Part shown: piece after piece, positions 4,301-40,903 of the stretch | Layout of the letters: every line of letters starts with the position of its first letter | How positions within the stretch are numbered: position 1 is the stretch's first letter | NCBI GenBank assembly: GCA_026196225.1 | Contig: JAPHRD010000012.1 | Coordinates: 1 to 55,567 of the forward strand | Source: Motiliproteus sp. | GTDB lineage: Bacteria > Pseudomonadota > Gammaproteobacteria > Pseudomonadales > Balneatricaceae | Direction: 5' to 3' | Length of the DNA stretch: 55,567 nt | Program-made: the position numbers and the translations under genes | Notes under the pieces: model-generated | Databases searched by the model: none | Seen by the model: only the letters and a program-made list of their open reading frames with translations | What the model was told of the DNA's origin: nothing

Positions 4301-4322
4301 TTAATGCACGGTGCAGACCATA
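4301..4322 (-). pseudogene. hupV: Displaced 3' end of hupV at the left prophage junction (attL)
   Basis: Read on the minus strand, 4322-4301 gives Met-Val-Cys-Thr-Val-His-stop, the same last residues as HupV at the right junction. Twelve bases (GTGCAGACCATA, 4311-4322) are identical to 39465-39476. The bases beyond them encode the same residues with different codons (ACC GTG CAT TAA against ACG GTT CAC TGA). This is the pattern left when an element integrates into the 3' end of a gene and carries its own substitute end. The 12-bp core is the likely strand-exchange site. Confidence 0.8.
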
Positions 4323-4443
4323 TATAGCTTAAAGAGCGCGGATAACAATATAAATATCAATACTTTGCAGAATATTTACTGTACGAAAACACATGCTTTT
4401 TTGATGTTTTACAGCCCATATAAATCAAACAGTTACATGGGGG

Positions 4444-4455
4444 TTTTGCACCCCT
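4444..4455 (+). repeat. Left copy of the TTTTGCACC repeat (possible integrase arm site)
   Basis: TTTTGCACCCCT here is identical to the last repeat at 39412-39423 near the right end. It lies about 120 bp inside the left core, while the three right-end copies lie about 45-75 bp inside the right core. This spacing fits arm-type Int-binding sites flanking a core on circular phage DNA. Confidence 0.5.
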
Positions 4456-4462
4456 TGCCTGC

Positions 4463-4520
4463 TTAGAGCGCTACCTTGACATGGTAGAGGTCGGCAGTTC
4501 GAATCTGCCTAGTCCTACCA
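4463..4520 (+). pseudogene. 3' half of a tRNA-Val (anticodon GAC)
   Basis: The sequence holds the 3' part of the D stem, a complete anticodon arm (CTACC-TTGACAT-GGTAG, anticodon GAC), the variable loop, a perfect T arm (GGCAG-TTCGAAT-CTGCC) and the 3' acceptor strand ending TAGTCCTACCA. A matching 5' acceptor (AGGACTA) and the 5' D arm are missing: the upstream bases are unrelated. It therefore cannot make a tRNA. Fragments of exactly this kind are carried as attP by elements that integrate into tRNA genes. Here it lies inside the prophage, away from the junction actually used. Confidence 0.8.
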
Positions 4521-4557
4521 AATTTGCTGGCCTTGACCTGATAGTATTTACTAACAC

Positions 4558-4585
4558 GGACAAAGACGGGACAAGACTGGGACAA
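4558..4585 (+). repeat. Three GGGACAA-type direct repeats beside the tRNA fragment
   Basis: GGACAA at 4558-4563 and GGGACAA at 4568-4574 and 4579-4585 are spaced 11 bases apart, starting about 38 bases after the tRNA CCA end. Phased short repeats next to a tRNA 3' end are typical arm sites of tRNA-targeting integrases. The assignment is by pattern only. Confidence 0.5.
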
Positions 4586-4590
4586 AACTT

Positions 4591-4629: not shown

Positions 4630-5673
4630 TTAATTCACATAGACCTGACTAACAGAGTCGTAAACGCCGATCACTTTTCCATCGCTATCCAGTTCATAGG
4701 AGAACGCGCCAGGTGTTGGAGCCCCGACCGAATCAGTCGGCGTGATCTTGGTCCCGCCATGACCCAGACGACAATAACGAGTATATTTTGAAGTGTTTGA
4801 AACGCTTCTAATCAGCTTGCATGTTTCCGCAGTCTTCTCAGCGGCAGAGCAGTCCGGATCTTTCTCGTGGCCTTTGAATCCACCCTCCGAACAATCATAA
4901 GCGATTTTACACACGCCGTCCGATGGATGCTCTGCAGGGGAAACATCATCAGCCGTCACGGTGCAGTAAGCCGCTGTAGAGCCGCCGCAATTTTGCCGTG
5001 AGATCCCGAAAGCACCAACACTGCTATTAAGGACATTATCCCAAATATAAAACGTGTAATAATCATCGGTAACATAGGTTGGGCCGATGTGGATGGAGAA
5101 TCTAGTGTTTTCAACATCCTGTGCAGCTGATAACGGGTCCGCACCCCATCCTGCAAGAATCCCAGCGTTTGCAAACCAGTATGTGCCTTCCTCCCATCCT
5201 TCTGGAACAGGGCCGTTGTCTGGATCATCCCAGCCTGGCGGCGCATCATACTCCGCACCACAGTCCCTGTTTAGATCAATAGAAACTGCCCCCCCGGTGG
5301 TCGGATCAGTGCCGGTCATTGTGGCTACTTGTGAAGCCATTGCCGTATGAGTGCCGCTGGAGCCGAACAAGTCATCGACATCACCAGAGGCACCATCAGC
5401 GCCACCGCTAGCCCCGCCGTTAATCGTGCCTGGGGAGCTTACAGAATCGCCTGTACTCGCGTTTTCTGGGTCAGTTTCGGTGCCTGAGCCGGAAAGCCCT
5501 GTATCTCCGGATTCATCAGCGCCGCCACCAGAGGTGATATTTCCATCCTTATCGGCTACAGCGAAACCAACGCGCGCTCGTACTTTAGGCGGGTTCGCCT
5601 CAAGCCCTAGACCGGCCCTAACTTCAGGGTCAGATTTTACGATTTTGATAATGGCTTCTGCTAATTCGCCCAT
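4630..5673 (-). CDS. Cysteine-rich late protein, probable tail-tip component
   Basis: No family is recognised in this 347-residue protein. Residues 1-35 resemble the short N-terminal anchor found in many tail-associated proteins. Residues 45-115 are a Gly/Ser/Asp/Thr-rich linker. From about residue 135 a compact region holds nine cysteines plus many aromatic residues, and the C-terminal 25 residues look like a beta hairpin. Being the last gene of the tail module, one base overlapping the tail-hub gene, it is likely a receptor-binding or tail-tip protein. No signal peptide is present, so any disulfides would have to form after release. Confidence 0.75.
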   Translation of the reverse strand: MGELAEAIIKIVKSDPEVRAGLGLEANPPKVRARVGFAVADKDGNITSGGGADESGDTGLSGSGTETDPENASTGDSVSSPGTINGGASGGADGASGDVDDLFGSSGTHTAMASQVATMTGTDPTTGGAVSIDLNRDCGAEYDAPPGWDDPDNGPVPEGWEEGTYWFANAGILAGWGADPLSAAQDVENTRFSIHIGPTYVTDDYYTFYIWDNVLNSSVGAFGISRQNCGGSTAAYCTVTADDVSPAEHPSDGVCKIAYDCSEGGFKGHEKDPDCSAAEKTAETCKLIRSVSNTSKYTRYCRLGHGGTKITPTDSVGAPTPGAFSYELDSDGKVIGVYDSVSQVYVN

Positions 5674-7337
5674 TAGTTCAGCACCAGTGTGTCATTAGGT
5701 ATTTCGATTTCATGATCAGAAGCAGCCGATACTTCTCGCTCATTCCGATCAGCGTCTGCGACAACCGGAGTGCGTACAATAAACCCGCCTTCTGGGTAGA
5801 TATTAAGCGTCTGGACTGCATCATAATATTTGTAGTTGCCGATCAAACCATCCCAAGTTTCATCGTATGCTGGGCTGGCGGCGTGGTTACCAAAGTAAGA
5901 GCCTAAAATAGTGGCTGAAGGCAGCGGACCAGAGTCTGATGTGTCTGGCGGGGTCGGTGCTGATATAGCTGACTCGGTGGGGGCCGTGTTCTCTACCCTG
6001 CTCAACGCAATCTTTAAGCGAGTGTAATGTTCCCAGCCAGGATCTTCACCGACATGAAGAATATGCTCGATCTCTTCCACCTTGCCTTTGCATTGAGCTT
6101 TTGTGCTGGTCAGGTCGATGGTGTGCTGTATTAGAATATCTGGGCGGACATTCACGGTATTCAGATCAACATAATTGGCCCTGTGATCACCTAAGATCTG
6201 AACCCTAGCAATAGCTATTCCACACTTAACAGCATCATCAGACTCAGTGCGATCCCCATCGACGCCCGTCGTCATATCCGTAATGTAGTCACCATTTGCT
6301 GACAGGGTGCCGGACGGATCTTCGTAGCTATCAAGATCATCCCAGTCACTGCTGTCATATTCAGCGGTAACGCCATAGGTGCTGCTTTTAGTCACTTCAC
6401 CAAACTGGGTAATGCTTTGCGGAGCCTTCACGGTTACCGTGTAATCTTCTGTCACCCTTTGGGTAAAACGTTGCATTAGCGTGAAGTCTGCACCAAGTGC
6501 GTACTTGGCCGCCTCGATAGGCGATATCACAAACGAGATGCCGCCATAGTACCCGCTCGGTCCGAAATCATCGAAGGTGTATCCAGGCTTCAGGACTAAG
6601 CCGGTTCCCTGTGCTGCTTCAATGATCTGATTTCTAAATGCTAGCGTTGTTGGGTCAGCAATATAAGTTGCCATTGCAGAATTGCCACCGGGATAATCCC
6701 AGGAAAACACATACTCACGATGACGAAGCCGCGTGAATCGGTATTTATAGTTAACAGCAATCGAATTGCGCAGGCTGTCACGGCTCGCTAAAGATACAGA
6801 AACACTTTCGTTCCGCACATCTGTCGCTGCCAAACTGATATCTGCGGTAGCTTTTGCACCCCAATCAGACAAGACAGCGGCATTACTACCATCAAAATCT
6901 AACGACTTATCAACAGTCAGAAGCCTGTCTTCAGCCTTGCGCGGGATATCCGCATCGCCGTCAAAGATGTACGTTGAATAACGGCTATCAGTAATGAGCG
7001 ATTCGATGCCCGATTCAGTATAAGCAGACAACAGACCGTTTCGGTTCTGCGTACATGCCATTAATACCGTTCGGGTGCTGATGTTAAACTGAGGCACATC
7101 AACCACACCAGTGAACACGCGGCGCACAGTAGTCGTCAGGTCCTCAATATCTATGGTTACGCTTTTACCGGCCCAGTCATTCGGATCGATCGAACCGGCT
7201 GGTGGGTCATAGGTGAAAGATGCGGTGCGGTTCTGGCCTGCGGATATCTTGACGCTTAAAACGCCGATAACACGCGCAGATATATCCGCACCATCCAGAG
7301 TCACGACAGCGTCCCAGGGTCTTGTTGGATGAGTCAT
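5673..7337 (-). CDS. Phage tail hub or tip protein
   Basis: The 554-residue protein starts with a domain resembling the first barrel of tail hub proteins (a beta-rich opening with VTLDGADISARV and then an ITIDIEDL-like stretch about residues 60-70). It continues as a mixed beta protein with many Asp and Tyr. It directly follows the tape measure gene with the stop and start overlapping, which is where siphophages encode distal tail or hub proteins. It probably closes the tail tube and carries the following Cys-rich protein. No lysozyme or peptidase motif is visible. The assignment rests mainly on position and general composition. Confidence 0.7.
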   Translation of the reverse strand: MTHPTRPWDAVVTLDGADISARVIGVLSVKISAGQNRTASFTYDPPAGSIDPNDWAGKSVTIDIEDLTTTVRRVFTGVVDVPQFNISTRTVLMACTQNRNGLLSAYTESGIESLITDSRYSTYIFDGDADIPRKAEDRLLTVDKSLDFDGSNAAVLSDWGAKATADISLAATDVRNESVSVSLASRDSLRNSIAVNYKYRFTRLRHREYVFSWDYPGGNSAMATYIADPTTLAFRNQIIEAAQGTGLVLKPGYTFDDFGPSGYYGGISFVISPIEAAKYALGADFTLMQRFTQRVTEDYTVTVKAPQSITQFGEVTKSSTYGVTAEYDSSDWDDLDSYEDPSGTLSANGDYITDMTTGVDGDRTESDDAVKCGIAIARVQILGDHRANYVDLNTVNVRPDILIQHTIDLTSTKAQCKGKVEEIEHILHVGEDPGWEHYTRLKIALSRVENTAPTESAISAPTPPDTSDSGPLPSATILGSYFGNHAASPAYDETWDGLIGNYKYYDAVQTLNIYPEGGFIVRTPVVADADRNEREVSAASDHEIEIPNDTLVLN

Positions 7338-9004
7338 TAGGCGATACTCACCGCCTTAGCTTCACCGCTCAGAACCTTGGTCATTGTATCGGCAAAGTTC
7401 TTCAACTCGGAAGGCTTACCCGAAACGGTTGCGCTGGCATCCTGGATCTTGAATTCCATTGTGCCGATCTTCTCAGCGTTGCCGCCGCTTAGCCGGTTGA
7501 GAACGTCTTTCTGACCGGTCTGGTCATAGAGGAAAGTGCTAGCCTTCGAGCGCTTGGCCTGCTCACCGGCGAACTTCAGTTGCCTGTTATACTCGGACTC
7601 GTTGCCTTGGTCTTTAGCGACCTTCGCAGCCTTCGCATACATCTCGAAATTGATATCTCGAATCTGGCGAGGTTTAGCAGCAAAGTCATCTTTTTCGTCA
7701 GCGGTCTTTTTGCTTGAGCTATCGGTGTCACCGAATAGCTTTTTATAAAGATCGGACACGCCAGAGGTTGTCTGTTTTACCTGATCTTTAAACTCTGAAA
7801 GGGATCTTGTTGAGTCATTAATGGCAACTCCATACTTGTCGAAATCGGCTGCAGCGCCTGCCAGCCCCGAAGCCCCGCCCTTGGTTAAAGCTCCCTTTTC
7901 GGCAGCCGACTTTTGGAATTCATCAATCTTAGACTTGATAGCAATAGATGGGCGCTCCGCATTCAGCAGGTTATCCAGCTGCTTGCTCATCTTATTGGTT
8001 TCTATTTCGAACCCATCAGCCAAACCACTGAACAGGTCAGAGCGTTGAAAACTGTCGTCAACTAATTCGCGAAGATTCGCGTAGGCTCCATATATGGAAT
8101 CAATTGATCGAAGCGCAATCTGTGCCAGCTTACCAAACGCAATCTGGATGCCTTTGATAATGATCTGCCAGCCACGGAATGCGTCAGCGACAAAGCCGAC
8201 ACCAGTGGCCAGACTGCCAACAACCTTGCTAGCGACCTTATCCATGCCTCCCATATCAAGCGTTACCTGGGTGATGTAATCCACCACGGCTTGGAAAGCA
8301 GGCGCAACAGCAACAGTGATTTGATTTAGAAAGCCATCCCAGATAGTGGATAGTTTGGTCTTGGCGTCGTTGTACGCTTCGACCATCGCGGCTTGTTGGC
8401 TGGTAATTCGAATCCCAAGCTTATCGAATTCGGCACCCGTGGCCGACAAATCTGAAAGCAAGGTATTCACCAGATCAGCACCGGAACGGCCGAAGATATC
8501 CATTGCAATGCGGGTTTGATCCGTCCTCGAAGAAACGTTCTTCAATGCTCCGGCGATAGCATTAAACTGCTGGTCTGCCGACATCTGAGATAATTGCTCT
8601 GCACTCAAGCCAAGCTGATCAAATGCGCGCACGGCTGTAGAAAGCCCGGCCTTGCCATCACCCACAGTTTTCAACATTCGCTGTAGAGACTTATCAAGCT
8701 GATTAGTCGATACACCGGACAATTCAGCCTGATAGCGAAGCTTTTGCAGCTCCCCGGTATCAATCCTGAGCGCCGCAGCCTTCTTGGCCAGCTTGTCGAT
8801 CTCGGCAGCTTGCCGGTTAACAACCACAGCGATTGCGCCAACCGCAGCAACTCCAGCCGCACCGATAGCCTTGGCCACCACAGACGCCTGTTTGCGGATG
8901 CGCTTAGCCCAAGCCCCAACACTGTTACGCGCCTTCGCTAATTCCTTGACCAGCTGTGCAGAGTTCGCACGCAGATCAACTGTCAGCTTTGCAATTGTTG
9001 CCAT
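7337..9004 (-). CDS. Tail tape measure protein
   Basis: It sets tail length and helps DNA entry. The 555 residues show the usual pattern: an N-terminal helical region starting with LTVDLRANSAQLVKEL, a hydrophobic glycine/alanine segment around residues 45-65 (AIGAAGVAAVGAIAVVV), then a long stretch of heptad-like helices rich in Ala, Gln, Lys and Asp, with a second hydrophobic helix near 260-290. Position after the frameshifted tail chaperones is diagnostic. At roughly 0.15 nm per residue this would mean a tail of about 80 nm, short for a siphophage. The stop overlaps the tail-hub start. Confidence 0.92.
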   Translation of the reverse strand: MATIAKLTVDLRANSAQLVKELAKARNSVGAWAKRIRKQASVVAKAIGAAGVAAVGAIAVVVNRQAAEIDKLAKKAAALRIDTGELQKLRYQAELSGVSTNQLDKSLQRMLKTVGDGKAGLSTAVRAFDQLGLSAEQLSQMSADQQFNAIAGALKNVSSRTDQTRIAMDIFGRSGADLVNTLLSDLSATGAEFDKLGIRITSQQAAMVEAYNDAKTKLSTIWDGFLNQITVAVAPAFQAVVDYITQVTLDMGGMDKVASKVVGSLATGVGFVADAFRGWQIIIKGIQIAFGKLAQIALRSIDSIYGAYANLRELVDDSFQRSDLFSGLADGFEIETNKMSKQLDNLLNAERPSIAIKSKIDEFQKSAAEKGALTKGGASGLAGAAADFDKYGVAINDSTRSLSEFKDQVKQTTSGVSDLYKKLFGDTDSSSKKTADEKDDFAAKPRQIRDINFEMYAKAAKVAKDQGNESEYNRQLKFAGEQAKRSKASTFLYDQTGQKDVLNRLSGGNAEKIGTMEFKIQDASATVSGKPSELKNFADTMTKVLSGEAKAVSIA

Positions 9005-9213
9005 TAGTTAGCACCACCAAAGAGCTGCTTGAATGCCTCGACTTTTTCCGCATCGGAAAGCTTCCGGGACGCCTCAAGCTCACGCTCGCGCTCTATTCGT
9101 TCGATAAATTTGCGATCTTCAAGGAGGTCGATAGCCATCCACTCGGCTATGTCAGCAGATGAGTGGGTGGCTAAAACCTGAGGTACAGGCATGCCCAGCC
9201 GCTTCGCCAGCAC
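9004..9213 (-). CDS. Tail assembly chaperone, frameshifted C-terminal part (GpT-like)
   Basis: As an independent frame it would start at GTG 9213, but the frame is open without stops back to the end of the upstream chaperone gene and joins it after a -1 slip at 9246-9252. The region read after the slip begins Leu-Ile-Asn-Arg-Pro-Phe-Arg-Arg-Tyr and continues as a short charged helical domain ending just before the tape measure start. In lambda-like phages the G-GT pair binds the tape measure during tail assembly. The fusion product would be about 195 residues. Separate translation from the GTG is less likely, as no good ribosome site precedes it. Confidence 0.85.
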   Translation of the reverse strand: MLAKRLGMPVPQVLATHSSADIAEWMAIDLLEDRKFIERIERERELEASRKLSDAEKVEAFKQLFGGAN

Positions 9214-9242
9214 AAAGGCATAACGACGAAATGGCCGGTTAA

Positions 9243-9593: not shown

Positions 9594-9605
9594 CTAGTGC
9601 CTCTA

Positions 9606-10004: not shown

Positions 10005-10082
10005 GGTGTTTTCCTCTTTGGGATCGTGTCGCCATCACGGCGAGTGGTGCCTATCTGGGCGTCATCACGACGAGCCAGGCAT

Positions 10083-10106
10083 AAAAAAGCCCCGCATGTG
10101 CGAGGC
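10083..10106 (-). terminator. Internal rho-independent terminator ahead of the tail tube gene
   Basis: On the minus strand a 7-bp stem (GCCTCGC with GCGGGGC, one G-T pair) and a 4-base loop are followed by TTTTTT. It lies between the tail completion gene and the major tail protein gene, within what otherwise looks like one operon. Confidence 0.75.
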
Positions 10107-10128
10107 CGGGTGAAAGGGTTCTTTCTAG

Positions 10129-12006: not shown

Positions 12007-13149
12007 TTACGCAGTAATTGCACCGCCAACGATTGACGCAGGGCGATAGACAGTGAGTGCTGTCCGCATCTCTGCACGCAAGGTGACCAGGTTGGTCTGG
12101 AAGTTCGTATCATCAGACTCAGACAGATCAACCGTCATGCCCTGGCGATTCCATACTTGCGCAGCCATATCGAACGCACCAACCAAGAATTGGCCGGCAG
12201 TCATTGCGTTAGATTCAACAATAGGCAATCCCCAAATAGTCCGCGGAGAGGCATTGCGGGGATCCGCAGCACGGAAGTGATTATCAGAGCCTTGATCAAG
12301 GTCGATGTCTTCACAATCGGCAGGATTAAGGATCACCGCAGTAGGAGCGTAATCCGACTGCAATACAGCTGTAATTGCGCGGCGAATATTCTCCATCTTG
12401 TTAGAGCTAGCAACAGGAGTGAACACCGTATAGTTGCCGGACTTCATCAAGCCGCCGATGTTTGCGCCAGTGCCGTTACCAAGCAGCAACTGCGTGTCAA
12501 GACGACGTAGGACGCCATAACGCATCCGGCCATCTACATGGCTCGCCAGCATAGGCGCATCATCAATAACCTGCTTGGAAAGCTTAATCCAGTGTGCAAT
12601 GGTAGCAACAGGGGCGCTTTCAAGCGTAAATGTCACATCAGACTCAGGCTTGGTTCCGCCTTCTGCGGTTTCCGCAGCGTTATCAACGAAAGTGGCCTCC
12701 TTGGTGTACTCAATAGCATTGCTAGTCGTCAACCCAGAAGGAAGAACGTCAGATATGCGCAGAATACGGTTTGCAGGTGCAATAATCCCAGAATAACGGT
12801 CTGGTGCGACCGTGGTATCAGATCCGGTGATAGTGTTGTTCTGAACATGGAATCGAGCGCTTTTGGTTAGCCCATTCTGCATCGATTTGAAGGAATCAGA
12901 TTCAGCAAATTGCATACCAGCGGACAGTTCAGGTTTTGCAGCGCCAGCCTGCGCGGTGGCGGCCTGTTCCATTTCCAGCATACGAGCACCAATTTCGCCG
13001 CACTGGTCTTCTAGCTTGGCCAGAGCTTCTTTATTAGCCCGACCCAGTTTGGAATTGGTTTCCATTTCTTCGTTGGACTTGTTAATAAAGTCCGTGACTT
13101 CTTTATTTAGCGAATCGACAGCCGCTTTGACATCAGTAGTCATAATCAT
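12007..13149 (-). CDS. Major capsid protein, HK97 fold
   Basis: The 380-residue protein has the HK97 gp5 organisation. Residues 1-100 form a charged coiled-coil scaffold (delta) domain with repeated Glu/Lys/Leu, ending near AAKPELSAGMQFAES. The mature domain follows, with TVAPDRYSGIIAPANRI and a long middle helix region, then the P-loop-like and A-domain strands up to RPASIVGG. The adjacent ClpP-like protease probably removes the delta domain around residue 100. Whether the subunits crosslink cannot be told. The start overlaps the protease stop by four bases. Confidence 0.95.
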   Translation of the reverse strand: MIMTTDVKAAVDSLNKEVTDFINKSNEEMETNSKLGRANKEALAKLEDQCGEIGARMLEMEQAATAQAGAAKPELSAGMQFAESDSFKSMQNGLTKSARFHVQNNTITGSDTTVAPDRYSGIIAPANRILRISDVLPSGLTTSNAIEYTKEATFVDNAAETAEGGTKPESDVTFTLESAPVATIAHWIKLSKQVIDDAPMLASHVDGRMRYGVLRRLDTQLLLGNGTGANIGGLMKSGNYTVFTPVASSNKMENIRRAITAVLQSDYAPTAVILNPADCEDIDLDQGSDNHFRAADPRNASPRTIWGLPIVESNAMTAGQFLVGAFDMAAQVWNRQGMTVDLSESDDTNFQTNLVTLRAEMRTALTVYRPASIVGGAITA

Positions 13150-13949
13150 TTACCTGCGAGAGTAGTAGAAAGAGAGGATAGAGCGCTGATTATTTGGCCT
13201 TGATCTTCAGCAGAATCGCTCTGCATCAGGTCTTTAGCGCGGGAGGTCAACGCGGTTGCCTCCTTACGGGAAAAACCACCAGCATCTCGCAGGTAGCTTT
13301 CGAAATCTTTCAATGTGGAAATATCACCAACCTGATCAGACACTGTGTTCTGCTGCGTCAGTGATTTAGGAATAGAGGCGAAGTGCTTGGCGAATTCTGG
13401 AGAAAGCGCAGCCACGTTAACCGATTCGGTCAGGACATCAACGAATCCATAATCCTTCGCATCTTTCCCGTTCAGCCAGCTTTCAGCGTTCAGCAATTCA
13501 ACCAGCGTCTGCTCATCCAGCCCGGTCTTTTTGTGGTAGATGCTGACTAATGAATCGCGGATTTTATCGAGCATGTCGGCAGTGTCACGCAACTCATCCG
13601 CATCACCCATGATCCCAACCCAAGGGTTATGGATCATTACAAAAGCGTCCTCTGGCATAGTAATCACATCACCAGCCATAAGTACGATAGAGGCAGCAGA
13701 AGCGGCGACGCCTTCAACGCGGGTGTAAACTTTTGCGGGGTGATTCTTAAGGGCGTTATAAATAGCCAAGCCATCAAACGCAGAACCGCCAGGCGAGTGG
13801 ATCGACACATTAATTTCTCGAACGCCTTGGTGATCGTTCATTTCTGTGATCAGGTCTTTTGCGGTAACACCCCACAATCCGATCTCATCATGGATTGATA
13901 AATCAACAACGCCGTTTGAGGCGTTTCTAACGCTATACCATCGCTTCAT
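13146..13949 (-). CDS. ClpP-like head maturation protease
   Basis: A serine protease that trims the capsid scaffold inside the prohead. The core is ClpP-like: INVSIHSPGGSAFDGLAIY (about residues 47-64) gives the oxyanion region, Ser84 in GVAAS is the likely nucleophile, and His107 in MIHNPW the base. The aspartate is probably in the LNGKDAKDYGFVD region (about 158-170). The C-terminal 80 residues are Ser/Asp/Lys-rich and may act as scaffold. The 267-residue length is usual. It overlaps portal upstream by 17 bases and capsid downstream by four. Confidence 0.95.
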   Translation of the reverse strand: MKRWYSVRNASNGVVDLSIHDEIGLWGVTAKDLITEMNDHQGVREINVSIHSPGGSAFDGLAIYNALKNHPAKVYTRVEGVAASAASIVLMAGDVITMPEDAFVMIHNPWVGIMGDADELRDTADMLDKIRDSLVSIYHKKTGLDEQTLVELLNAESWLNGKDAKDYGFVDVLTESVNVAALSPEFAKHFASIPKSLTQQNTVSDQVGDISTLKDFESYLRDAGGFSRKEATALTSRAKDLMQSDSAEDQGQIISALSSLSTTLAGK

Positions 13950-15153
13950 CGGCGGATGCTCCTAGTTTGTCAATGGGGGCAAGATTTATCTGCGCGGTCA
14001 GATCGTCGCCGCCATCGCGTTCAGGTAAGTTCTCTTTGCGGCGGGCTTCATTTCTAGACATCAGGCCGTTTTGAACCATTGTGGAATAAAAGTTGGCGCG
14101 GGCCTCCGCCGTCGCCCGTAACAACCCTTCGAAGTTGAATTCAATCGTATAATTCCGACTCTCAGCGCTGGTCAGTAATGCATTCGCCATCGATTGCTCC
14201 CAGTTGGTCATCTGGGACCGTAGCTTTAGTTGAAGAAATGCCAGCATAATCTGTTCGATGCCGCTGCCCCATGTCGTGGTGCTACTGGTATCGTTTATAA
14301 GTACGGAAGGCACGCCGAACCAGCGGGCTATATCTTCGATCTGAAAGCGGCGGCTTTGCAGCATTTGAGCATCTTCAGGATTGATCTGAACCTGTTGATA
14401 CTTCATACCGCCTTCAAGCAGAAAAAGCTTGTGTGCGTTGGCGCTACCCTCATGGAGTGCAGAGAAGTTTTCGCGGATTTTCTGGCGCTGCTCTTTAGTT
14501 AGAACTTGCTCAATAGTCAGAACGCCGCCGGGCTTGCCGCCATTGGTGAAAAACTTGGTTGAGTATTCTTCTGTAGCCAGAGATAAGCCGAGAGTCGTCC
14601 TGCCATAAGCCAATGGAGACATGCCGACATTACCGTTCCCCATATTTTTGATATGAAGAATGTCTTTCTGCTCGATCGGATATTCACCAGCTTCCGTTGA
14701 ATAAAGATAAACTAACTCGCCATTTTTACCCACTTCAACCCGCATTTGAGCGGCTGACAGCGGCCATAGCGCAATCACTTTTCCCCTAGAATTTCGATCA
14801 ATCTTCGAATATGCGTTACCATAAAGACACCAATTAAGCATCATGGCTTGCCGCCATTCGAAAGATGTCATGCGCGAATTGGGCTTGCGATGGAGAATGC
14901 GATATAGATCGTTGTTTTTCGCCGGCTTCCTTCCCTTATCAGTTTCTTCGTAGACAACTAAAGGGAGGCTGGCAACAGTCTCGGCTAGAAGATGAACGCA
15001 CGCCCAAACAGCTGAAAGCTGCAGCGCTGTGTCTTCGGTAACCGATTTGACGCTGTTCGTGCTGTACATATTAGGATAGATATCCTGTTGACCTTGTTTA
15101 TCAGCGGTAGAACCTCCACCGAATATCGAGGCTATGCGTGTCCACATACTCAT
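13933..15153 (-). CDS. Portal protein, HK97 family
   Basis: The 406-residue protein matches the HK97-type portal, which forms the dodecameric DNA channel at one head vertex. Visible signatures are SAVWACVHLLAETVASLPL (about 47-65), the LLHRKPN/RMTSFEWRQAMML-like region near 85-105, LWPLSAAQMRV, DILHIKNM, and the C-terminal FEGLLRATAEARANFYSTMVQNG region. It directly follows large terminase with no gap and overlaps the protease start by 17 bases. Complete at both ends. Confidence 0.95.
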   Translation of the reverse strand: MSMWTRIASIFGGGSTADKQGQQDIYPNMYSTNSVKSVTEDTALQLSAVWACVHLLAETVASLPLVVYEETDKGRKPAKNNDLYRILHRKPNSRMTSFEWRQAMMLNWCLYGNAYSKIDRNSRGKVIALWPLSAAQMRVEVGKNGELVYLYSTEAGEYPIEQKDILHIKNMGNGNVGMSPLAYGRTTLGLSLATEEYSTKFFTNGGKPGGVLTIEQVLTKEQRQKIRENFSALHEGSANAHKLFLLEGGMKYQQVQINPEDAQMLQSRRFQIEDIARWFGVPSVLINDTSSTTTWGSGIEQIMLAFLQLKLRSQMTNWEQSMANALLTSAESRNYTIEFNFEGLLRATAEARANFYSTMVQNGLMSRNEARRKENLPERDGGDDLTAQINLAPIDKLGASADEAMV

Positions 15154-16824
15154 TTATGAAATCACCGGGTCATCAAGAAAATCATTCAGTGATCCACCAA
15201 GCTCAGCATGGCGAAGCACACGACTAACGGCAGTGAAAAGAGCGACCATGCCGTCAATTTTGTTATCTGGATGTTCTTTGTTGGGAAATACGTTTTCGTT
15301 TTTATCAACTTTGGCGGTGACGTTTGACGCCATCCAATTAAGAACAGGGTTGTCACCGTGATGAAGCCGCCCGGAAATAACAGCTGCTTCAATTTCCTTC
15401 ATGGCTTCGGACAAGTTTTTTACCGTCTGCGGGACTTCGATCATCGGAGCGCCCTCAGCAGCAAGGTGATTGGCCATCTGAGTGGACCCCCAAGGATCAA
15501 ATCCAATTTCCTGAACTTCATACTCGCTGAGGATTGTTCGAATTTCGTCTTCAATTCGGTCATGGTCAATCACCGCGCCTTCGGTCAGGGTGAGATAGCC
15601 CGACTCTGACCAACTCTGATACATATTGCCGATAGAGCGCGATTTAATGTGGATGGCGTCTTCAGGCAACCAGAACCATGATTTAAGGTGAAAATGGCCA
15701 TCATCTAGCGGAAAGACCATCACCAGCGCGGCAACGTCTAACTTGTTCGCCAGGTCCATGCCGATAAAGCACGGCGATTGCTGGAGAACTTCATCTGATT
15801 CAACAGCCGGGCAACGGTCCCACTTCTCCATGTCCATCCATGCCGTTGCGGTGTTCACCCAGACATTGAGGCGCTTAGTTAAGAAGTTGTTGCGGGCGGT
15901 CGGCATCTCCTTGGCTTTCTTAGCCAGGCGGCGGATGTCGTCCCACTTAACGCTAATTCCAAGATTAGGATTGGCCTTAATCCAGTTCGATTCATCCTGC
16001 CAATCATCACCATCATCAAGCGTGTAGATAATGGCGAAATAACTGTCATCTTCGACAACACCATCAAGGATCTTGGTGGCGTATTCGCGCTGCTCGTAGC
16101 AGATGCCCTGCTTGTTGAATCCAGCAGTAGTGATCGCAAAGAGTAATGGCTGGTCACGCGCTCCGGTCGCTGTCTCGATAACGTCCCAGACTTCCCGCGT
16201 CTTGTGTGCGTGCAGCTCATCCACGATGCCGCAGTGAACGTTCAAGCCATCCAAGTTGTTTGCATCGCTGGATAACGGCTCAAACTTTGAGGCAGTCGGG
16301 AGAACGTGCAGGTTAAGCTTGGTGGCACCGAATAACCGCTTAAGGAACGGCGAGCGATCAACCATCACTTTCGCATCATTGAAGACAATGCGCGCCTGAT
16401 CACGAGTAGTGGCGCAGCTATAAACCTCTGCACCGCCTTCGCTATCAAAGCCAGTCATGTAAAGACCAACACCAGAGCAAACCGTGCTTTTAGCGTTTTT
16501 TCTAGCCACTTCGTTGTAAGCGGTGCGGAAGCGTCTTAACCCATCGTCACGCATCCAGCCGAATATGTTGGCAAGGATGAACGCCTGCCAGGGCTCTAGT
16601 TTAATAACCTGACCAGCTAAAGCGCCTTTGACATGAGTGGTGAACTGATAGAAGTCTAGTGCGTGCTGCGCGGCCTCTTCATCAAAATAAAGCCCGCGAT
16701 CTTTGCATGTTTCTAGATCATTCAGATACCGCTGGCACGATAGCCGAACCCATCGACACGCAACTATCCTGCCCTCTACAACATCTTTAGCATATTGAAG
16801 GGCATCGGATACGGTAGCGGTCAT
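15154..16824 (-). CDS. Terminase large subunit
   Basis: The packaging motor and nuclease, 556 residues. The ATPase half shows an adenine-motif region KLEPWQAFILANIFG (about 75-89), a Walker A variant VARKNAKST (106-114), and Walker B GIVDE (199-203). The nuclease half starts around FIGMDLANKLDVAALVMVF (about 350-368), whose first aspartate is a likely metal ligand. A second acidic site lies near VQEIGFDPWGS. The family is HK97/P27-type terminase, usually cos-cutting with an adjacent HNH protein, and such an HNH gene lies 540 bases upstream. Overlaps the small subunit by four bases. Confidence 0.95.
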   Translation of the reverse strand: MTATVSDALQYAKDVVEGRIVACRWVRLSCQRYLNDLETCKDRGLYFDEEAAQHALDFYQFTTHVKGALAGQVIKLEPWQAFILANIFGWMRDDGLRRFRTAYNEVARKNAKSTVCSGVGLYMTGFDSEGGAEVYSCATTRDQARIVFNDAKVMVDRSPFLKRLFGATKLNLHVLPTASKFEPLSSDANNLDGLNVHCGIVDELHAHKTREVWDVIETATGARDQPLLFAITTAGFNKQGICYEQREYATKILDGVVEDDSYFAIIYTLDDGDDWQDESNWIKANPNLGISVKWDDIRRLAKKAKEMPTARNNFLTKRLNVWVNTATAWMDMEKWDRCPAVESDEVLQQSPCFIGMDLANKLDVAALVMVFPLDDGHFHLKSWFWLPEDAIHIKSRSIGNMYQSWSESGYLTLTEGAVIDHDRIEDEIRTILSEYEVQEIGFDPWGSTQMANHLAAEGAPMIEVPQTVKNLSEAMKEIEAAVISGRLHHGDNPVLNWMASNVTAKVDKNENVFPNKEHPDNKIDGMVALFTAVSRVLRHAELGGSLNDFLDDPVIS

Positions 16825-17297
16825 TTGCGGCGGCGATTAAGAAACTCTGCTAACTGGTCATGCTCTTGCGGCTCATTGGTTTGAACCTTGGTGCGGCTGG
16901 CGGGCGATAAGCCAAACTCATTAATCATTCCGCGAATACGCTTAAACGCATCGGACGCCATAGCCACTTCAGGCCGGGCTTTGATCATCGTCTCGCCAGC
17001 CTGGTTAGTTGTTTCGTATGTGAAACCATGCTTATTAACCAGGTCGCGCAGATCGCGCCACTCTGAATAAGCATCACAAAGTAGTTCGAGGCTCTTGCTG
17101 TCAGCAATTGTCAGCACCCCCATTTCCAGCAGTAACTCTGATAACCCTTTAAAGGCATATTTTGCCTTCGGGGAAAGGTGTGCTGGAGTGCGTGGTTTTT
17201 CTGCCTTAGGTTTCGGCTCATTCTTAGGAATGGCGCGCTTACCAGCGTTACCTTGTAACACTTTCAAGGCTGTCGGTTTGGGTGATGGCCCAGGCAT
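16821..17297 (-). CDS. Terminase small subunit, P27 family
   Basis: The 158-residue protein begins with the standard P27 signature, a GPSPKPTALKVLQGNAGKR run at residues 3-21, followed by a basic linker with EPKPKAEKPRTPAHL. A helical core contains LLLEMGVLTIADSKSLELLCDAYSEW, read in parts over 53-79, and RPEVAMASDAFKRIRGMINEFGL. It recognises the phage DNA end and loads the large subunit. Its start is preceded by AGGAGGTCC, a strong ribosome site, and its stop overlaps the large-subunit start. Confidence 0.95.
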   Translation of the reverse strand: MPGPSPKPTALKVLQGNAGKRAIPKNEPKPKAEKPRTPAHLSPKAKYAFKGLSELLLEMGVLTIADSKSLELLCDAYSEWRDLRDLVNKHGFTYETTNQAGETMIKARPEVAMASDAFKRIRGMINEFGLSPASRTKVQTNEPQEHDQLAEFLNRRRK

Positions 17298-29475: not shown

Positions 29476-29590
29476 ACAAGTATAACTTACATCACAATGC
29501 GAAGAGGAATCAAGATATTCTTTCATCTCAGACTGTGAGCAATGCAGAAATAAAGTATTTCTTTCAGTGAAAGGAACAAGCAGCGCTTGT
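29476..29590. promoter_or_regulatory. Operator cluster between cro-like and cI-like genes
   Basis: A 15-bp dyad ACAAGC-AGC-GCTTGT at 29576-29590 is perfect in its 6-bp arms. ACAAGT-ATA-ACTTAC at 29476-29490 matches five of six arm positions. Weaker copies sit at 29510-29524 (TCAAGA-TAT-TCTTTC) and 29551-29565. The left site covers a minus-strand TATACT (-10 of the cro promoter), and the right one is 12 bases before the cI ATG. Four sites in one divergent gap fits CI/Cro switching. Confidence 0.7.
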
Positions 29591-29602
29591 AATATTGCGT
29601 AT

Positions 29603-30280
29603 ATGGAAAATGATATAGCGTCCAGAATCACGCATAGGCGGGAATCGATCGGCCTAAGCCAAACCGACATCGCCTCTGCGCTTGATATAACTCCACAAGC
29701 TGTCCAGCAATGGGAGAGCGGAAAAACCACGCCTCGCGGAAAGCGAATGGAAAAACTGGCCGCCCAGCTCCGAACCACTCCGCAGTGGCTTCAATATGGC
29801 ACAGGCTTTATAGAAGACACCAATCACCGATTATCATTCTATGACGACCAGCCTTCTGATATCGTCGAGATCCCTATTTATAACGCCCAACTTGCCGCAG
29901 GATCTGGCGTTTGGGCCACTGATGAAAACATAATAGGCACTATGTCATTTCCAAGGTCATGGATTACCGCAAATGGGCTGCCAATGGCTGGCTTAGCAAT
30001 AGCTGAAGCCTCCGGAGATAGCATGCATCCCTCTATTAAGGATGGGGATACCCTGCTGATAGATACTAATCAGAAGAAACCTTCCTCTGGACAGGTGTTT
30101 GCATTCGCTAATGGCGACGCAGAACTACGCGTAAAACGCCTATCAAAGCGCATGGACGGCATGTGGGTTATCCGGTCGGATAACTCTGACCCTGCTTATA
30201 TGGATGAAACTATAAGCCCTCAAGACGTTCAAACCCTCCATATCATCGGGCGCGTAGTTAAAGTTATCGGCAATATTTAA
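29603..30280 (+). CDS. CI-like repressor, HTH plus LexA/S24 peptidase domain
   Basis: The lysogeny repressor, 225 residues. The N-terminal HTH is ITHRRESIGLSQTDIASALD (about 9-28) then ITPQAVQQWESG. The C-terminal S24 domain begins with a conserved segment PIYNAQLAAGSGVWA containing the Ala-Gly cleavage region. Catalytic Ser lies in EASGDSMHPSIKDGD and Lys in DAELRVKRL. RecA-driven self-cleavage after DNA damage is expected. An upstream GTG at 29567 is in frame, but ATG 29603 is at the normal HTH start. The message may be leaderless, since no ribosome site is evident. Confidence 0.95.
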   Translation: MENDIASRITHRRESIGLSQTDIASALDITPQAVQQWESGKTTPRGKRMEKLAAQLRTTPQWLQYGTGFIEDTNHRLSFYDDQPSDIVEIPIYNAQLAAGSGVWATDENIIGTMSFPRSWITANGLPMAGLAIAEASGDSMHPSIKDGDTLLIDTNQKKPSSGQVFAFANGDAELRVKRLSKRMDGMWVIRSDNSDPAYMDETISPQDVQTLHIIGRVVKVIGNI

Positions 30281-33112: not shown

Positions 33113-33433
33113 ATGTATCGGGCAAAGCTGGGCCGCCAGTCCCAAGATAACTGGCCAGAACATACTCCGCTCTGTGGTCTTGATGCCGCGAAAGCCTTTA
33201 ACGAAAAGCTACGCGATGAGCGAAACCACGCGCGATGGAAATGCGGCCAACTGAAAGAAGAGGTCGAACTGCTGGAACGTTGCAGGAAGGACTTGCACGG
33301 AACCACCCGCCAGCTTCAAGGCGAGGTATCAGAACTGCGCAAAGAAAACGTGGATTTGAAACAACAAGTCCGCAACCAAGCGGATCGCATCAAGCAACTA
33401 GAACAGGAAGCAAAGCAATGGCAAGAGGCGTAA
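33113..33433 (+). CDS. Coiled-coil protein preceding ssb
   Basis: From about residue 30 to the end the 106-residue protein is a continuous charged coiled coil with leucine heptads ([20 protein letters not shown], then [22 protein letters not shown]). The N-terminal 30 residues are a short non-helical cap with one Cys. Small coiled-coil proteins of this type often help recombination or ssb function, but there is no direct evidence here. The end overlaps the ssb start by 16 bases, so translation is coupled. Confidence 0.75.
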
Positions 33434-33879
33434 ACAAAGTAATCCTGATCGGCAACCTGGGACAAGATCCAGAAACGCGATACATGCCGAACGGGAATGC
33501 AGTCACCAACGTAACGGTGGCCACCAGTGATAGCTGGAAAGATAAAGATGGCCAGCAGCAAGAGCGCACCGAGTGGCACCGCATTGTCTTCTTCGGAAAG
33601 CTCGCGGAGATCGCCGGGCAATATACAAAGAAGGGTTCGAAGATCTACGTAGAAGGTGTGCTGCGCACACGCAAATGGCAGGACCAGAATGGCGAGGATA
33701 AATACACCACTGAGATCGTTGTGGATATGAATGGCCAAATGCAGATGCTCGATAGCCTGGGTTCTGACAAAGCGTCACAACAAGCCGCTGCATACGTGAA
33801 TCAGCCAGCAGCACAGCAGCCCGCTCAGCAACAACCGGCCGCGCCTGAATTTGACGACACAGACGACATACCGTTCTAG
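33418..33879 (+). CDS. ssb: Single-stranded DNA-binding protein
   Basis: The 153-residue SSB begins [19 protein letters not shown]. It has an OB fold through about residue 112 ([56 protein letters not shown]), a Gln/Ala/Pro-rich linker, and the acidic tail ending DDTDDIPF that recruits DNA-processing partners. The frame is open upstream to 33235, but those bases belong to the coiled-coil gene in another frame. It is in the rightward operon and coats phage single strands during replication and recombination. Confidence 0.97.
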
Positions 33880-37949: not shown

Positions 37950-38246
37950 ATGGAACGATCAATATCACTTCGAGAATGGGACAAGCGGAAGTTTGAGAAG
38001 CCGCACTCAATGTCCACCCTGCGCAAGTGGGCCAGAGAGGGCTATATCAAGCCGCAGCCGGAATTGGTGGGCTCACGCTATGAAGTGCTACCCTCGGCCA
38101 GCTATGTGCGGCCCAATAGCGACAGAATGACGAAGTTGCGCCAAGCTAAAACGATGCAGCAGGCGAATCTTTCCGAGTCATTGAATGCCGCCGCCGCTGA
38201 TCCTGAAATGCTGGAGATCTTGGACGATGAATTCGAGGCCGCGTAA
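37950..38246 (+). CDS. xis: Excisionase-like protein (Xis)
   Basis: The 98-residue basic protein starts MERSISLREWDKRKFEKPHS and has a winged-helix pattern STLRKWAREGYIKPQPELVGSRYEVLPSASYV (in parts), like lambda Xis. It overlaps int by 20 bases with ATG inside its coding end, the same arrangement as lambda xis-int. It would bind near attR and bend the DNA to favour excision. An AGGAGGATAT ribosome site precedes it. Confidence 0.88.
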   Translation: MERSISLREWDKRKFEKPHSMSTLRKWAREGYIKPQPELVGSRYEVLPSASYVRPNSDRMTKLRQAKTMQQANLSESLNAAAADPEMLEILDDEFEAA

Positions 38247-39375
38247 GAATAACCTGGGCGTTCCTAATCTGTATCTGGTCATCAACAAAAAGACCGGGCA
38301 GATCAAGTATCGCTATAAGAACATCCTGAGCGGTAAGTTCAAGATGCTGAAAACGCGAAGCCGTGAAGAGGCCATCATCAAGGCTCAGCAGCTGAACGCC
38401 ATCATCGCCCAAAAGCTATTGGACCGTGAAGCCGCAGCCATCCTAGAAGCCGACAACAGCCAAGGTATTACCGTAGCTGCTTGGATTGATCAGTTTGTTG
38501 AGATCCAGAAGCACAGAGCCGAATCAGGCGAGATAAAAACGAGCACCTACGATAATGCCCGCTGGAAACTAAACCCCGTTAAAGAGAAATGCGGGCGGCT
38601 GAAGCTGGGGCAATTCAACACCCTACGGATCAATGAATACCTTCATGAAAAATACGTTGTTCGCGATAAGAAGCGAATGGCGCAGGCAGTACGATCAAGG
38701 TTGATCGAGGTATTTAAAGAAGCGGTAGCGGCTGGACATTTCCCCGCAGATAAGCCCAACCCGGCAGAAGTAGCCAAGACTGTGCGCGTGAAGGTCAAGC
38801 GCTCACGGCTAACGCTGGATGTATTCAATAAAGCGATGGAATGGGCGCAGAAAAACCAACCTGAATGGCAATGGCGGTCTTATCAGCTGGCGCTATTAAC
38901 CGCGCAGCGCCTGACCGATGTCGGTGGGTTTAAGTTTGCGGATATCAGGAAGGATAATGGGATCGAATATCTGGGGATTGTTCAGGGGAAAGGCGGCAAT
39001 CGGCTGATGATACCAATGGATCTGCACCTGGAAGCCATCAACTGGACGCTTAGAGATATCGTTAGCGCCTGTAGAAATCGAGTAGTTAGCCCGTATCTGC
39101 TCCACCATACCAAGCACGTAGGCAGAGCGAAGCCTGGGCAGCAAGTCAGATCGAAATCATTAAGCAATGGATTTGCCGAAGCCATCAGAGCAGTAAAGAA
39201 AGATTGGGGAGAATACAACCCGCCCTCTTTTCATGAATTGCGCTCACTCTCAGAACGCCTTTTTGAAGAACAAGGCATCAACACGCAGCACCTGCTAGGT
39301 CACAAGCACAAGACCACCACAGACACCTATCATGATGCTCGCGGACACGATTGGATCAAGGTAAAAATCAGCTAG
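38227..39375 (+). CDS. int: Lambda-type tyrosine integrase
   Basis: ATG 38227 gives 382 residues, with an N-terminal arm-binding domain (RPRKNNLGVPNLYLVINK, about 4-21), a core-binding domain (about 85-185) and the catalytic domain. The full catalytic set is present: Arg228 in AQRLTD, Lys255 in QGKGG, His336 and Arg339 in SFHELRSLSERL, His359 in LLGHK, Tyr368 in TYHD. It resembles lambda/HK022 Int closely in the last 50 residues. It recombines the core at the hupV 3' end. The gene ends 90 bases before attR, with arm-like repeats between. Confidence 0.97.
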   Translation: MNSRPRKNNLGVPNLYLVINKKTGQIKYRYKNILSGKFKMLKTRSREEAIIKAQQLNAIIAQKLLDREAAAILEADNSQGITVAAWIDQFVEIQKHRAESGEIKTSTYDNARWKLNPVKEKCGRLKLGQFNTLRINEYLHEKYVVRDKKRMAQAVRSRLIEVFKEAVAAGHFPADKPNPAEVAKTVRVKVKRSRLTLDVFNKAMEWAQKNQPEWQWRSYQLALLTAQRLTDVGGFKFADIRKDNGIEYLGIVQGKGGNRLMIPMDLHLEAINWTLRDIVSACRNRVVSPYLLHHTKHVGRAKPGQQVRSKSLSNGFAEAIRAVKKDWGEYNPPSFHELRSLSERLFEEQGINTQHLLGHKHKTTTDTYHDARGHDWIKVKIS

Positions 39376-39389
39376 GGGTTTAGGTAGGG

Positions 39390-39420
39390 TTTTGCACCTA
39401 TTTTGCACCTATTTTGCACC
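39390..39420 (+). repeat. Three tandem TTTTGCACC repeats beside attR
   Basis: TTTTGCACC occurs at 39390-39398, 39401-39409 and 39412-39420, an 11-bp period (TTTTGCACCTA). They are between the int stop and the attR core, 45-75 bp from it. A fourth copy lies at the left end (4444). Int or Xis arm sites are the likely meaning. Confidence 0.65.
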
Positions 39421-39454
39421 CCTAAAATAATCCTTATATTTCAACGCCTTACAA

Positions 39455-40903
39455 TCAGTGAACCGTGCAGACCATACAGGGATCGAATGAGCGAACAATA
39501 TGCTGTACTGCAACAGGCTCTTTCTCCCCTTCTCTGACCGGTGCGCCTTGTAGCGCCAGCTCTAAAGCCCCTGGTTGCTGTTGGCTATCTCGGGGGGAGA
39601 AATTCCAGGTGGTGGGAGCGATAATCTGGTAGTTATGGATCTTGCCGTCACGAACTTCGAGCCAGTGGCCCAGGCTGCCGCGGGCTGCTTCCAAAGTGCC
39701 AATACCGATACCGTCCTGCATTAGCTGACCATTGTCTTCAAAGAAGGGCTGACTGGGGTCTATCTCCCGCGCCCACTGCTCCATGGCAATGGTAATCCGC
39801 GCCAGTTCCAACAAGCGCATCAGAACCCGGTTGCGAACGTTGCTGCGGCTGTCCTGGTACAACGCTCGAGCCAGGGGATGCCCATCTACCAGCTGACGGG
39901 CAAAGGCGCCCACTTCAACCATCTTGCCATCCAGGCGGGGCGCTTTGCACCAGCTGTAACCTGCCGGGTTGCTCATGTCGGGTTCTGTTTCACCGCTGAT
40001 GGGCGGCAGTTGCGCTTGGCTCTGATTCATCCAGCTATGGCTGATATCTTCACTAATCAAAGAGAGATCCAGTGGTTTTTTGCCCTGTTGCCAAAGCCCG
40101 GGATGCAGGCAATATTCACCATTTAGGGGATAGTTGCCGTAACTCATAAACAGATCGCCGGCCTGCCCCAGTTGTTGCAGCTGCAGATCCTCAGAAATTT
40201 CCAAAAACAGTGTTAGATCAGATTCAATACTATTCGCCGCCGCCCAGCTTTGTAGCGCCTCTAGGCTATCCAGGGCAACAAAGTTTTCCAGCCGATCACC
40301 AATGGTCACTCGCTCAAGAAAGGCTCTGAAACCCTGCAAAATAGCCAGCACCCTTAATCGTTCTTGCGGCTGAACTGACTTGCTAACACCACCAGGTTGC
40401 AGGGTGAGTGTATGGGGCCATTTGCCTGCCAGGGTTCCCATCAAATGTAGGAATTCTGCCCGTGCCGGAACAATCTCAGCGGTGGCGGTTCCAGTCACGG
40501 CCTTAAAGCGCCGCTCAACTTTGTCGAACCAAGGGCGATCACGATAGATAGGACGGGCAAAATCGGGCATAAAGAACAGGTAGAAGTGGCTGAAATGGTC
40601 GGCCATGTTCTCGTTGGCCAGCACCAGATTGGTCACCCGCTGGCCGTTGACCGGCATTTTGATACCCTGAACATCAGCAAGGGCTCGTAGTGCAGCGACT
40701 GATTGGGAAACCGAACAGATACCGCAGATTCGTGGTGTATAGACCATGGCATCCTCAGGGCGTTTGCCCCGGAGGATCTGTTCAAAACCACGATATAGGG
40801 TGCAGTTGACCCAAGCCTGCTGTACCTGTTGTTGAGAGATATCCAGTTTTACTTCGAGATCCCCTTCAACTCGATTAAAGGGGCCAACTACCAGTCTTGT
40901 CAC
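39455..40903 (-). CDS. hupV: H2-sensing [NiFe] hydrogenase large subunit
   Basis: The 482-residue subunit carries the Ni-Fe site: TPRICGICSVSQ near residue 57 and DPCMVCTVH at the C-terminus supply the four cysteine ligands. Unlike catalytic uptake hydrogenases, it ends exactly at this histidine with no extension to be cut off, which is the mark of regulatory (group 2b, HupV/HoxC) enzymes. These sense H2 and control a kinase rather than supply electrons. The last codons (39455-39464) come from the prophage end. It lies four bases after hupU. The 12-bp att core lies within its final codons. Confidence 0.93.
   Translation of the reverse strand: MTRLVVGPFNRVEGDLEVKLDISQQQVQQAWVNCTLYRGFEQILRGKRPEDAMVYTPRICGICSVSQSVAALRALADVQGIKMPVNGQRVTNLVLANENMADHFSHFYLFFMPDFARPIYRDRPWFDKVERRFKAVTGTATAEIVPARAEFLHLMGTLAGKWPHTLTLQPGGVSKSVQPQERLRVLAILQGFRAFLERVTIGDRLENFVALDSLEALQSWAAANSIESDLTLFLEISEDLQLQQLGQAGDLFMSYGNYPLNGEYCLHPGLWQQGKKPLDLSLISEDISHSWMNQSQAQLPPISGETEPDMSNPAGYSWCKAPRLDGKMVEVGAFARQLVDGHPLARALYQDSRSNVRNRVLMRLLELARITIAMEQWAREIDPSQPFFEDNGQLMQDGIGIGTLEAARGSLGHWLEVRDGKIHNYQIIAPTTWNFSPRDSQQQPGALELALQGAPVREGEKEPVAVQHIVRSFDPCMVCTVH
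39465..39476. other. attR core within hupV
   Basis: GTGCAGACCATA is identical to 4311-4322 at the left end. On the minus strand it reads TATGGTCTGCAC, covering codons for Met, Val and the metal-ligand Cys of the DPCMVCTVH motif. The reading frame is preserved across the junction, so HupV stays complete in the lysogen. Confidence 0.8.

What the first reader, a model, noticed from the sequence alone, without database searches (positions are those of the whole stretch)
4301..39476. Prophage integrated into the nickel-binding 3' end of an H2-sensor hydrogenase gene
The 12-bp repeat GTGCAGACCATA at both ends is the codon block for Met-Val-Cys in the C-terminal DPCMVCTVH motif of HupV. The left copy still encodes Met-Val-Cys-Thr-Val-His-stop in a different codon spelling (ACC GTG CAT TAA, against ACG GTT CAC TGA). 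Excision would restore exactly the same protein end, and in the lysogen the phage supplies the last residues. Integrases prefer conserved 3' ends, usually tRNA genes. The metal-ligand end of a regulatory hydrogenase, which cannot tolerate a C-terminal extension because this class is not processed, would be a neat and, to my knowledge, not commonly described target. The cyanobacterial hupL element interrupts a gene and must excise; here the gene stays intact.
Basis: partly seen in the sequence, partly recalled or inferred. Interest (0 to 1): 0.85.

Follow-up and report, generated by a model that had tools for sequence, protein, structure and literature searches.

The report
Prophage at hydrogen-sensor gene end
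A temperate phage sits at the very end of a bacterial hydrogen-sensor gene and carries its own spelling of the gene's last codons, so the sensor protein stays the same; related phages use the same spot, in the way that coliphage 21 is already known to use another gene.

Summary
A 35.2-kb prophage with capsid, portal, terminase, tail, CI-like, Xis and Int genes lies between two copies of TATGGTCTGCAC, at the 3' end of hupV (H2-sensor hydrogenase large subunit). Joining the outer flanks gives a HupV identical to the lysogen's. The site is recurrent. Relatives of this Int (49-50% identical) sit at the same spot in two other genera. One has an exact 24-bp second core; beyond it lies DNA that follows hupV in an uninterrupted congener. 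A viral contig carries an uninterrupted attP: tail genes, MVCTVH-stop, three arm repeats, Int (52%). The mechanism is not new. The Int is related to that of coliphage 21 (39%), whose attP has the same layout and carries the icd 3' end. New is the target, with a weakly supported single clade of integrases. It suggests that this phage swapped its integration module.

The parts
39455..40903 (-). hupV, H2-sensor [NiFe]-hydrogenase large subunit, 482 aa, ends DPCMVCTVH-stop; last codons phage-supplied
   Evidence: PF00374 E 2.5e-74; end compared with relatives
40908..41963 (-). hupU, hydrogenase small subunit
   Evidence: PF01058 and PF14720; N-terminus read
41902..43296 (-). PAS-domain histidine kinase (HupT-like)
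   Evidence: HisKA, HATPase_c, PAS; the name HupT is recalled
39465..39476 (-). attR core TATGGTCTGCAC
4311..4322 (-). attL core TATGGTCTGCAC
4301..4321 (-). displaced host end of hupV: MVCTVH-TAA
38185..39375 (+). int, lambda-type tyrosine integrase with arm domain, 396 aa
   Evidence: PF00589, PF09003; phage 21 Int 38.7%
37950..38246 (+). xis, excisionase overlapping int
   Evidence: phrog_629, PF07825
39390..39422 (+). three tandem 11-bp arm-type repeats (TTTTGCACCTA, TTTTGCACCTA, TTTTGCACCCC) between int and the core
   Evidence: same place as the annotated three arm subsites of phage 21
4444..4452 (+). single arm-type motif on the attL side
4460..4524 (+). fossil core: 3' 61 nt of host tRNA-Val(GAC) plus 4 nt, 98% identical to G000:C78
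   Evidence: Rfam tRNA match 29.2 bits
4557..4590 (+). three tandem GGACAA-containing repeats beside the tRNA-Val fragment (fossil arm sites)
   Evidence: similar repeats in congener G001
29567..30280 (+). CI-like repressor (HTH plus S24 peptidase)
16821..17297 (-). terminase small subunit
   Evidence: PF05119
15154..16824 (-). terminase large subunit
   Evidence: phrog_9
13933..15153 (-). portal protein, HK97 type
13146..13949 (-). Clp-type protease, probably the head protease
   Evidence: PF00574; role inferred from position
12007..13149 (-). major capsid protein, HK97 type
7337..9004 (-). tape-measure protein
   Evidence: phrog_9483
4630..7337 (-). two late genes at the left end (347 and 554 aa); the larger matches phrog_5842 (unknown function), the smaller matches no PHROG or Pfam family
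   Evidence: relatives in other genomes
25669..26832 (-). DNA exonuclease
   Evidence: phrog_704
33235..33879 (+). single-strand DNA binding protein
   Evidence: phrog_44

Best explanation
This is a temperate tailed prophage with HK97-type head genes. Its lambda/phage-21-type tyrosine integrase uses the last seven codons (including the stop) of hupV as attB. Crossover takes place within TATGGTCTGCAC, the codons around Met-Val-Cys of the nickel-binding C-terminal motif. attP carries its own MVCTVH-stop with different synonymous codons, so integration swaps the codons of the last three residues and the stop (ACC GTG CAT TAA) for ACG GTT CAC TGA and the protein is unchanged. Int presumably binds three tandem arm sites between its own stop codon and the core and one motif on the far side, and Xis presumably helps excision. 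Shown: sequence, reading frame, arm repeats, silent restoration, recurrence at hupV in relatives, attP in a viral contig. Inferred: activity of Int and Xis, the exact crossover point, and that the sensor works in lysogens. An older tRNA-Val attachment half-site next to the new attP suggests that the int-attP module replaced a tRNA-Val-specific one.
For: Exact core pair and silent restoration. Integrase with arm domain, excisionase, repressor and virion genes. In 116 family genomes 5 Int genes in 4 genomes pass E 1e-40: the window, G024 and G017 at hupV, and two in G124 elsewhere. G024 has a 24-bp identical core pair on two contigs, phage genes to about 1.7 kb before the second core, and beyond it 1.4 kb, 68.5% identical to DNA that begins about 600 bp after hupV in congener G009. 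Viral contig L144: phage tail genes, then MVCTVH-stop, three arm repeats and a 52% Int, with no hupV match; its core region matches the predicted attP at 21 of 23 bases. Viral contig L154 carries MVCTVH-TAG near one end and a 48% Int at the other. The phage 21 record has the same order: int, three arm subsites, target-gene 3' end.
Against: No empty relative of the window's own left flank was found. G017 shows no second core: no other place in that genome matches the 21-mer with fewer than 3 mismatches, and none of the 3-mismatch places lies in the 60 kb after its hupV, so its element may be degraded. The G024 flank test is not clean across the genus: in congener G036 the matching DNA lies about 17 kb after hupV, and the 10 kb after hupV in G048 gave no match. 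Single origin of the five hupV integrases is weakly supported (70/70; 72% of 200 bootstrap trees). Of 16 viral contigs matching the degenerate end pattern, only L144 has an Int relative in the stretch held; of four whole records searched, L144 and L154 fit and L143 and L147 do not. No excision data exist.
Confidence: 0.94

Rival explanations
1. The phage's true site is tRNA-Val, and hupV is an accidental secondary site.
For: A 65-bp tRNA-Val piece with three arm-like repeats lies in the left end.
Against: Around the tRNA-Val gene on C78 no integrase-like ORF of 120 aa or more was seen by eye in 16 kb. The G024 and G017 loci held, whose Int relatives sit at hupV, show no tRNA-Val fragment of this kind. 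The arm repeats beside int (TTTTGCACC) differ from those beside the tRNA piece. attP carries a full MVCTVH-stop, which a chance secondary site would not need.
Confidence: 0.03
2. The two hupV ends are an old host duplication or an assembly artefact, not att sites.
For: The 12-mer pair alone is reached in 6 of 100 shuffles.
Against: Independent occurrences in other genomes and in viral contigs with the same Int type and geometry.
Confidence: 0.02
3. The element is integrated as described but is a dead prophage that no longer excises (compatible with the best explanation of the site).
For: No activity data; the G017 element lacks a recognisable second core and G036 keeps only a P-arm-like relic.
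Against: Int, Xis, repressor, terminase, portal, capsid and tape-measure frames are open and both cores are identical.
Confidence: 0.3

Closest known systems
Coliphage 21 (and e14) at icd
   Same: Related integrase (phage 21 Int 38.7%; best listed match in the phage collection 40.7%, Providencia phage PSTCR8lys; 20 of 109 records listed); order int - three tandem arm subsites - 3' end of the target gene, which faces int; excisionase just upstream of and overlapping int; attP replaces the gene end. Arms of G024 and G017 (TTCCCCCAAAA) resemble the annotated phage 21 consensus YYTTCCCCAAAA.
   Different: Target is hupV, not icd; attP carries about 7 codons instead of the last 53 residues; Int is only about 39% identical.
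tRNA-gene integrases
   Same: Conserved gene 3' end restored by attP; a fossil of this type is in the same prophage.
   Different: The present site is a protein gene.
Cyanobacterial hupL excision element (xisC)
   Same: Mobile element in a [NiFe]-hydrogenase large-subunit gene.
   Different: That element interrupts hupL and is excised during heterocyst formation (PMC4874684, passages); here hupV stays intact.

Membership tests
Phage 21 / icd-type integration (gene end replaced by attP) | lambda-type tyrosine integrase with arm-binding domain | tested here: met
   PF00589 and PF09003
Phage 21 / icd-type integration (gene end replaced by attP) | three tandem arm sites between int stop and core | tested here: met
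   repeats at 39390-39422, binding not tested; phage 21 annotation
Phage 21 / icd-type integration (gene end replaced by attP) | attP carries the 3' end of the target gene in frame | tested here: met
Phage 21 / icd-type integration (gene end replaced by attP) | target is icd | tested here: not met
   target is hupV; the monomeric IDH gene at 533-2764 is 1.5 kb outside the prophage
Phage 21 / icd-type integration (gene end replaced by attP) | Int-dependent excision and integration | not testable with these tools
   needs induction and PCR
Regulatory (H2-sensing) hydrogenase HupUV/HoxBC | [NiFe] large subunit without C-terminal extension | tested here: met
   stop directly after the last His here and in all 21 family homologues L003-L023; class property in PMC7294309 (passages)
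Regulatory (H2-sensing) hydrogenase HupUV/HoxBC | small subunit and PAS histidine kinase adjacent | tested here: met
Regulatory (H2-sensing) hydrogenase HupUV/HoxBC | small subunit without twin-arginine signal | tested here: met
   first 60 residues of HupU read by eye, no RRxFxK motif (motif recalled)
Regulatory (H2-sensing) hydrogenase HupUV/HoxBC | match above the cut-off of a curated NCBIfam model | tested here: not met
   large and small subunit match general hydrogenase models, none above its cut-off, and no HupU/HupV model appeared; not a defining feature of the class, told for completeness
Regulatory (H2-sensing) hydrogenase HupUV/HoxBC | senses H2 | not testable with these tools
   biochemistry needed
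hupL-type excision element | coding sequence interrupted until excision | tested here: not met
   hupV frame intact

The most novel reading that the evidence does not exclude
A phage lineage specialised on H2-sensing hosts, whose lysogeny is tied to the sensor: it can integrate only where hupV exists, and transcription of the hupTUV operon running into the convergent int would couple excision to the host's hydrogen response.
Probability: 0.07. Interest if true: 0.75.

Novelty: new member of a known kind. Interest (0 to 1): 0.5.

Why it matters
It adds a metal-ligand codon block of a hydrogenase to the conserved gene ends used by integrases, with attP copies that keep the peptide MVCTVH-stop while synonymous codons differ. 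It gives a candidate attB/Int pair for gammaproteobacteria with a H2 sensor. The fossil tRNA-Val site beside the new attP looks like a sequence record of an integration-specificity switch.

Tried and rejected
Searches for an uninterrupted relative of the window's own left flank: five left-flank ORF translations (two of them probably not genes) and the flank DNA gave no hit in 21 loci, 19 of them stretches downstream of hupV. The monomeric IDH gene of the left flank was found in 5 of 5 genomes asked, on other contigs than hupV in 4 of them and about 690 kb away on the same contig in G004.

Int protein in viral contigs gave no confirmed relative; the 554-aa late protein none. The terminase gave 16 viral loci; of 10 of these records searched, 6 had an integrase-family match. 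Three full-length ones (L128-L130) show no significant similarity to this Int.

Order (2 of 390 at E 1e-60: window and G017) and class (1 of 369: the window) samples added no Int. The samples are drawn evenly from larger groups, so absence elsewhere is not shown.

Viral contigs L143 and L147 match the end pattern and hold distant Int genes (37% and 34%), but not beside the match. In L143 the match and the Int lie near opposite contig ends, as in L154, but the 1 kb beyond its Int shares no 9-mer with the region of the match: treated as chance. For the other 12 of the 16 contigs only the stretch held was searched for Int, with no match.

G017's weak 10-mer at a possible distal end lies in a response-regulator gene: rejected.

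The exact tRNA-Val 22-mer in viral contigs gave 0.

The 218-aa integrase-like protein at 36672-37328 was considered as the old tRNA-Val integrase: it has only a catalytic-domain match just over the cut-off (29.6 against 27.1 bits) and the usual catalytic motifs look degenerate by eye; no match in phage records or solved structures; not adopted.

Literature: ten searches. In the rows listed (several lists were cut, for example 15 of 737) and in passages of ten papers I saw no phage at hupV/hoxC. Most subscription journals are absent from that library.
Full report
What is there. The window is contig C63 of a 3.96-Mb draft genome. Its genus also holds G004, whose contig length and hupV end are those of Motiliproteus sediminis HS6. 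On the minus strand run a PAS histidine kinase, a hydrogenase small subunit and a large subunit, that is hupT-hupU-hupV (names recalled). HupV ends DPCMVCTVH-stop. In all 21 family homologues (own included) the stop follows this His directly; 15 of 21 read exactly MVCTVH. Absence of a C-terminal extension is a property of the regulatory hydrogenase (PMC7294309, passages). Directly after the stop lies a convergent integrase gene, 396 aa, with arm-binding and catalytic domain matches and a core-binding match just under its cut-off. To its left are a Pfam Exc excisionase, a CI-like repressor and, on the opposite strand, terminase, portal, protease, HK97 capsid and tail genes.

The ends. The core TATGGTCTGCAC is exact at both ends. 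On the left its host side continues CGTGCATTAA, on the right its phage side continues GGTTCACTGA; with the last two core bases both spell Thr-Val-His-stop. Joining the two host sides gives a HupV identical to the lysogen's. The prophage is 35,154 bp core to core. In G000 no other place matches the degenerate 21-mer with fewer than 3 mismatches.

Recurrence. Of 96 genomes searched, own included, 38 have some match to HupV, and 21 match over at least query residues 3-482 at E below 1e-150 (my count). Of these 21, three carry this type of Int beside the stop: the window, G024 and G017. Of 116 family genomes, 4 hold Int genes at E 1e-40 or better, 5 genes in all: these three at hupV, and two in G124 (43-44%) with no MVCTVH-type end in the 14-15 kb held around each. 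In G024 a 24-bp block at the hupV end (C14:110602-110625) recurs exactly at C10:28946-28969. C10 before that point encodes primase, terminase, portal, protease, capsid and tape measure; of ten proteins scanned eight matched a PHROG, the last ending about 1.7 kb before the core. The DNA beyond the core matches, at 68.5% over 1.4 kb, DNA that begins about 600 bp after hupV in congener G009; in congener G036 the match lies about 17 kb after hupV, and G048 shows none in 10 kb. Among 16 viral contigs that hold the degenerate end, L144 has tail genes on one side and three arm repeats plus a 52% Int on the other, with no hupV match: an intact attP. Contig L154 has the end at 562-582 and a 48% Int at its other end. 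The other 14 show no convincing pairing; the whole records of 12 of them were not searched. G036 keeps a P-arm-like sequence after hupV (shuffle z 9.0 and 11.7 against G024 and G017) but has no Int match, perhaps a relic; in the same test two congeners without Int (G027, G051) score 13.8, so host kinship can also give such values, and window against L144 scores only 3.4. G017 has no recognisable second core. In a 15-row tree the five hupV integrases need one origin, but with support of only 70/70 and 72% of 200 bootstraps.

Closest known. The phage collection gives 109 records, all under 60% identity, 20 listed; the best listed is Providencia phage PSTCR8lys at 40.7%, and phage 21 is at 38.7%. 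The phage 21 record annotates, after int, three arm subsites with consensus YYTTCCCCAAAA, then the last 53 residues of isocitrate dehydrogenase facing int. The layout here is the same. That attP carries replacement sequence at icd is in print (PMC10111431, passages; PMC6379469 for e14, passages). Hence the kind is known and the target is new as far as searches show. PMC12884075 (passages) says that many attB sites lie in protein-coding genes and that many attP sites complete the gene that the island enters.

A second, fossil site. At 4460-4524 the prophage carries the 3' 61 nt of the host's tRNA-Val(GAC) and 4 more bases, 98% identical, followed by three GGACAA-containing repeats. Around the tRNA gene on C78 I saw no integrase-like ORF among those of 120 aa or more in 16 kb (by eye). 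Of 116 family genomes, the pattern tRNA end plus GGGACAA occurs in 3: once in the window, twice in congener G001, and once in G150, where it lies in an ordinary open reading frame; the reversed control pattern has 2 matches in the same genomes. The two G001 places align with the window beyond the tRNA and lie beside phage genes. I infer that this phage once integrated at tRNA-Val and later acquired the hupV-type int-attP module; the order of events and the old integrase are not shown. A relative of the 554-aa late protein lies about 1.2 kb from a tRNA-Leu in G032, which would fit module exchange.

Limits. No activity data; no empty strain for this very flank; draft contigs; the crossover point within the 12 bp is unresolved.

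Noticed in passing
window 4460-4590: tRNA-Val(GAC) 3' fragment followed by three GGACAA-containing repeats inside the left prophage end: fossil of another attachment site; similar sites in congener G001 beside phage genes.
   Followed up: yes
window 36672-37328 (+): 218-aa protein with an integrase catalytic-domain match just over the Pfam cut-off and no arm or core domain match, upstream of xis; the usual catalytic motifs look degenerate by eye.
   Followed up: partly
L018 (G038), locus 2926-2978: hupV's last 26 bases up to the stop are followed, after one base, by a perfect inverted copy of themselves; terminator hairpin or recombination scar.
   Followed up: partly
L017 (G036), 60 bp after hupV stop: P-arm-like sequence similar to that of G024 and G017 elements, but no integrase match in that genome: perhaps a relic of a lost element.
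   Followed up: partly
L139 (G032:C182), 5013-8019: Relative of the window's 554-aa late protein lies about 1.2 kb from a tRNA-Leu, suggesting that related prophages use other sites.
   Followed up: no
L072 (G124:C120), 7648-10617: Related Int (43%) lies about 0.85 kb upstream of a second, integron-type-looking integrase gene (by eye), next to fabG/fabD/plsX-like genes; L073 has a similar second integrase.
   Followed up: no
window 533-2764 (+): Monomeric isocitrate dehydrogenase lies 1.5 kb outside attL; taken as a coincidence with the icd target of phage 21, since it is not interrupted.
   Followed up: partly
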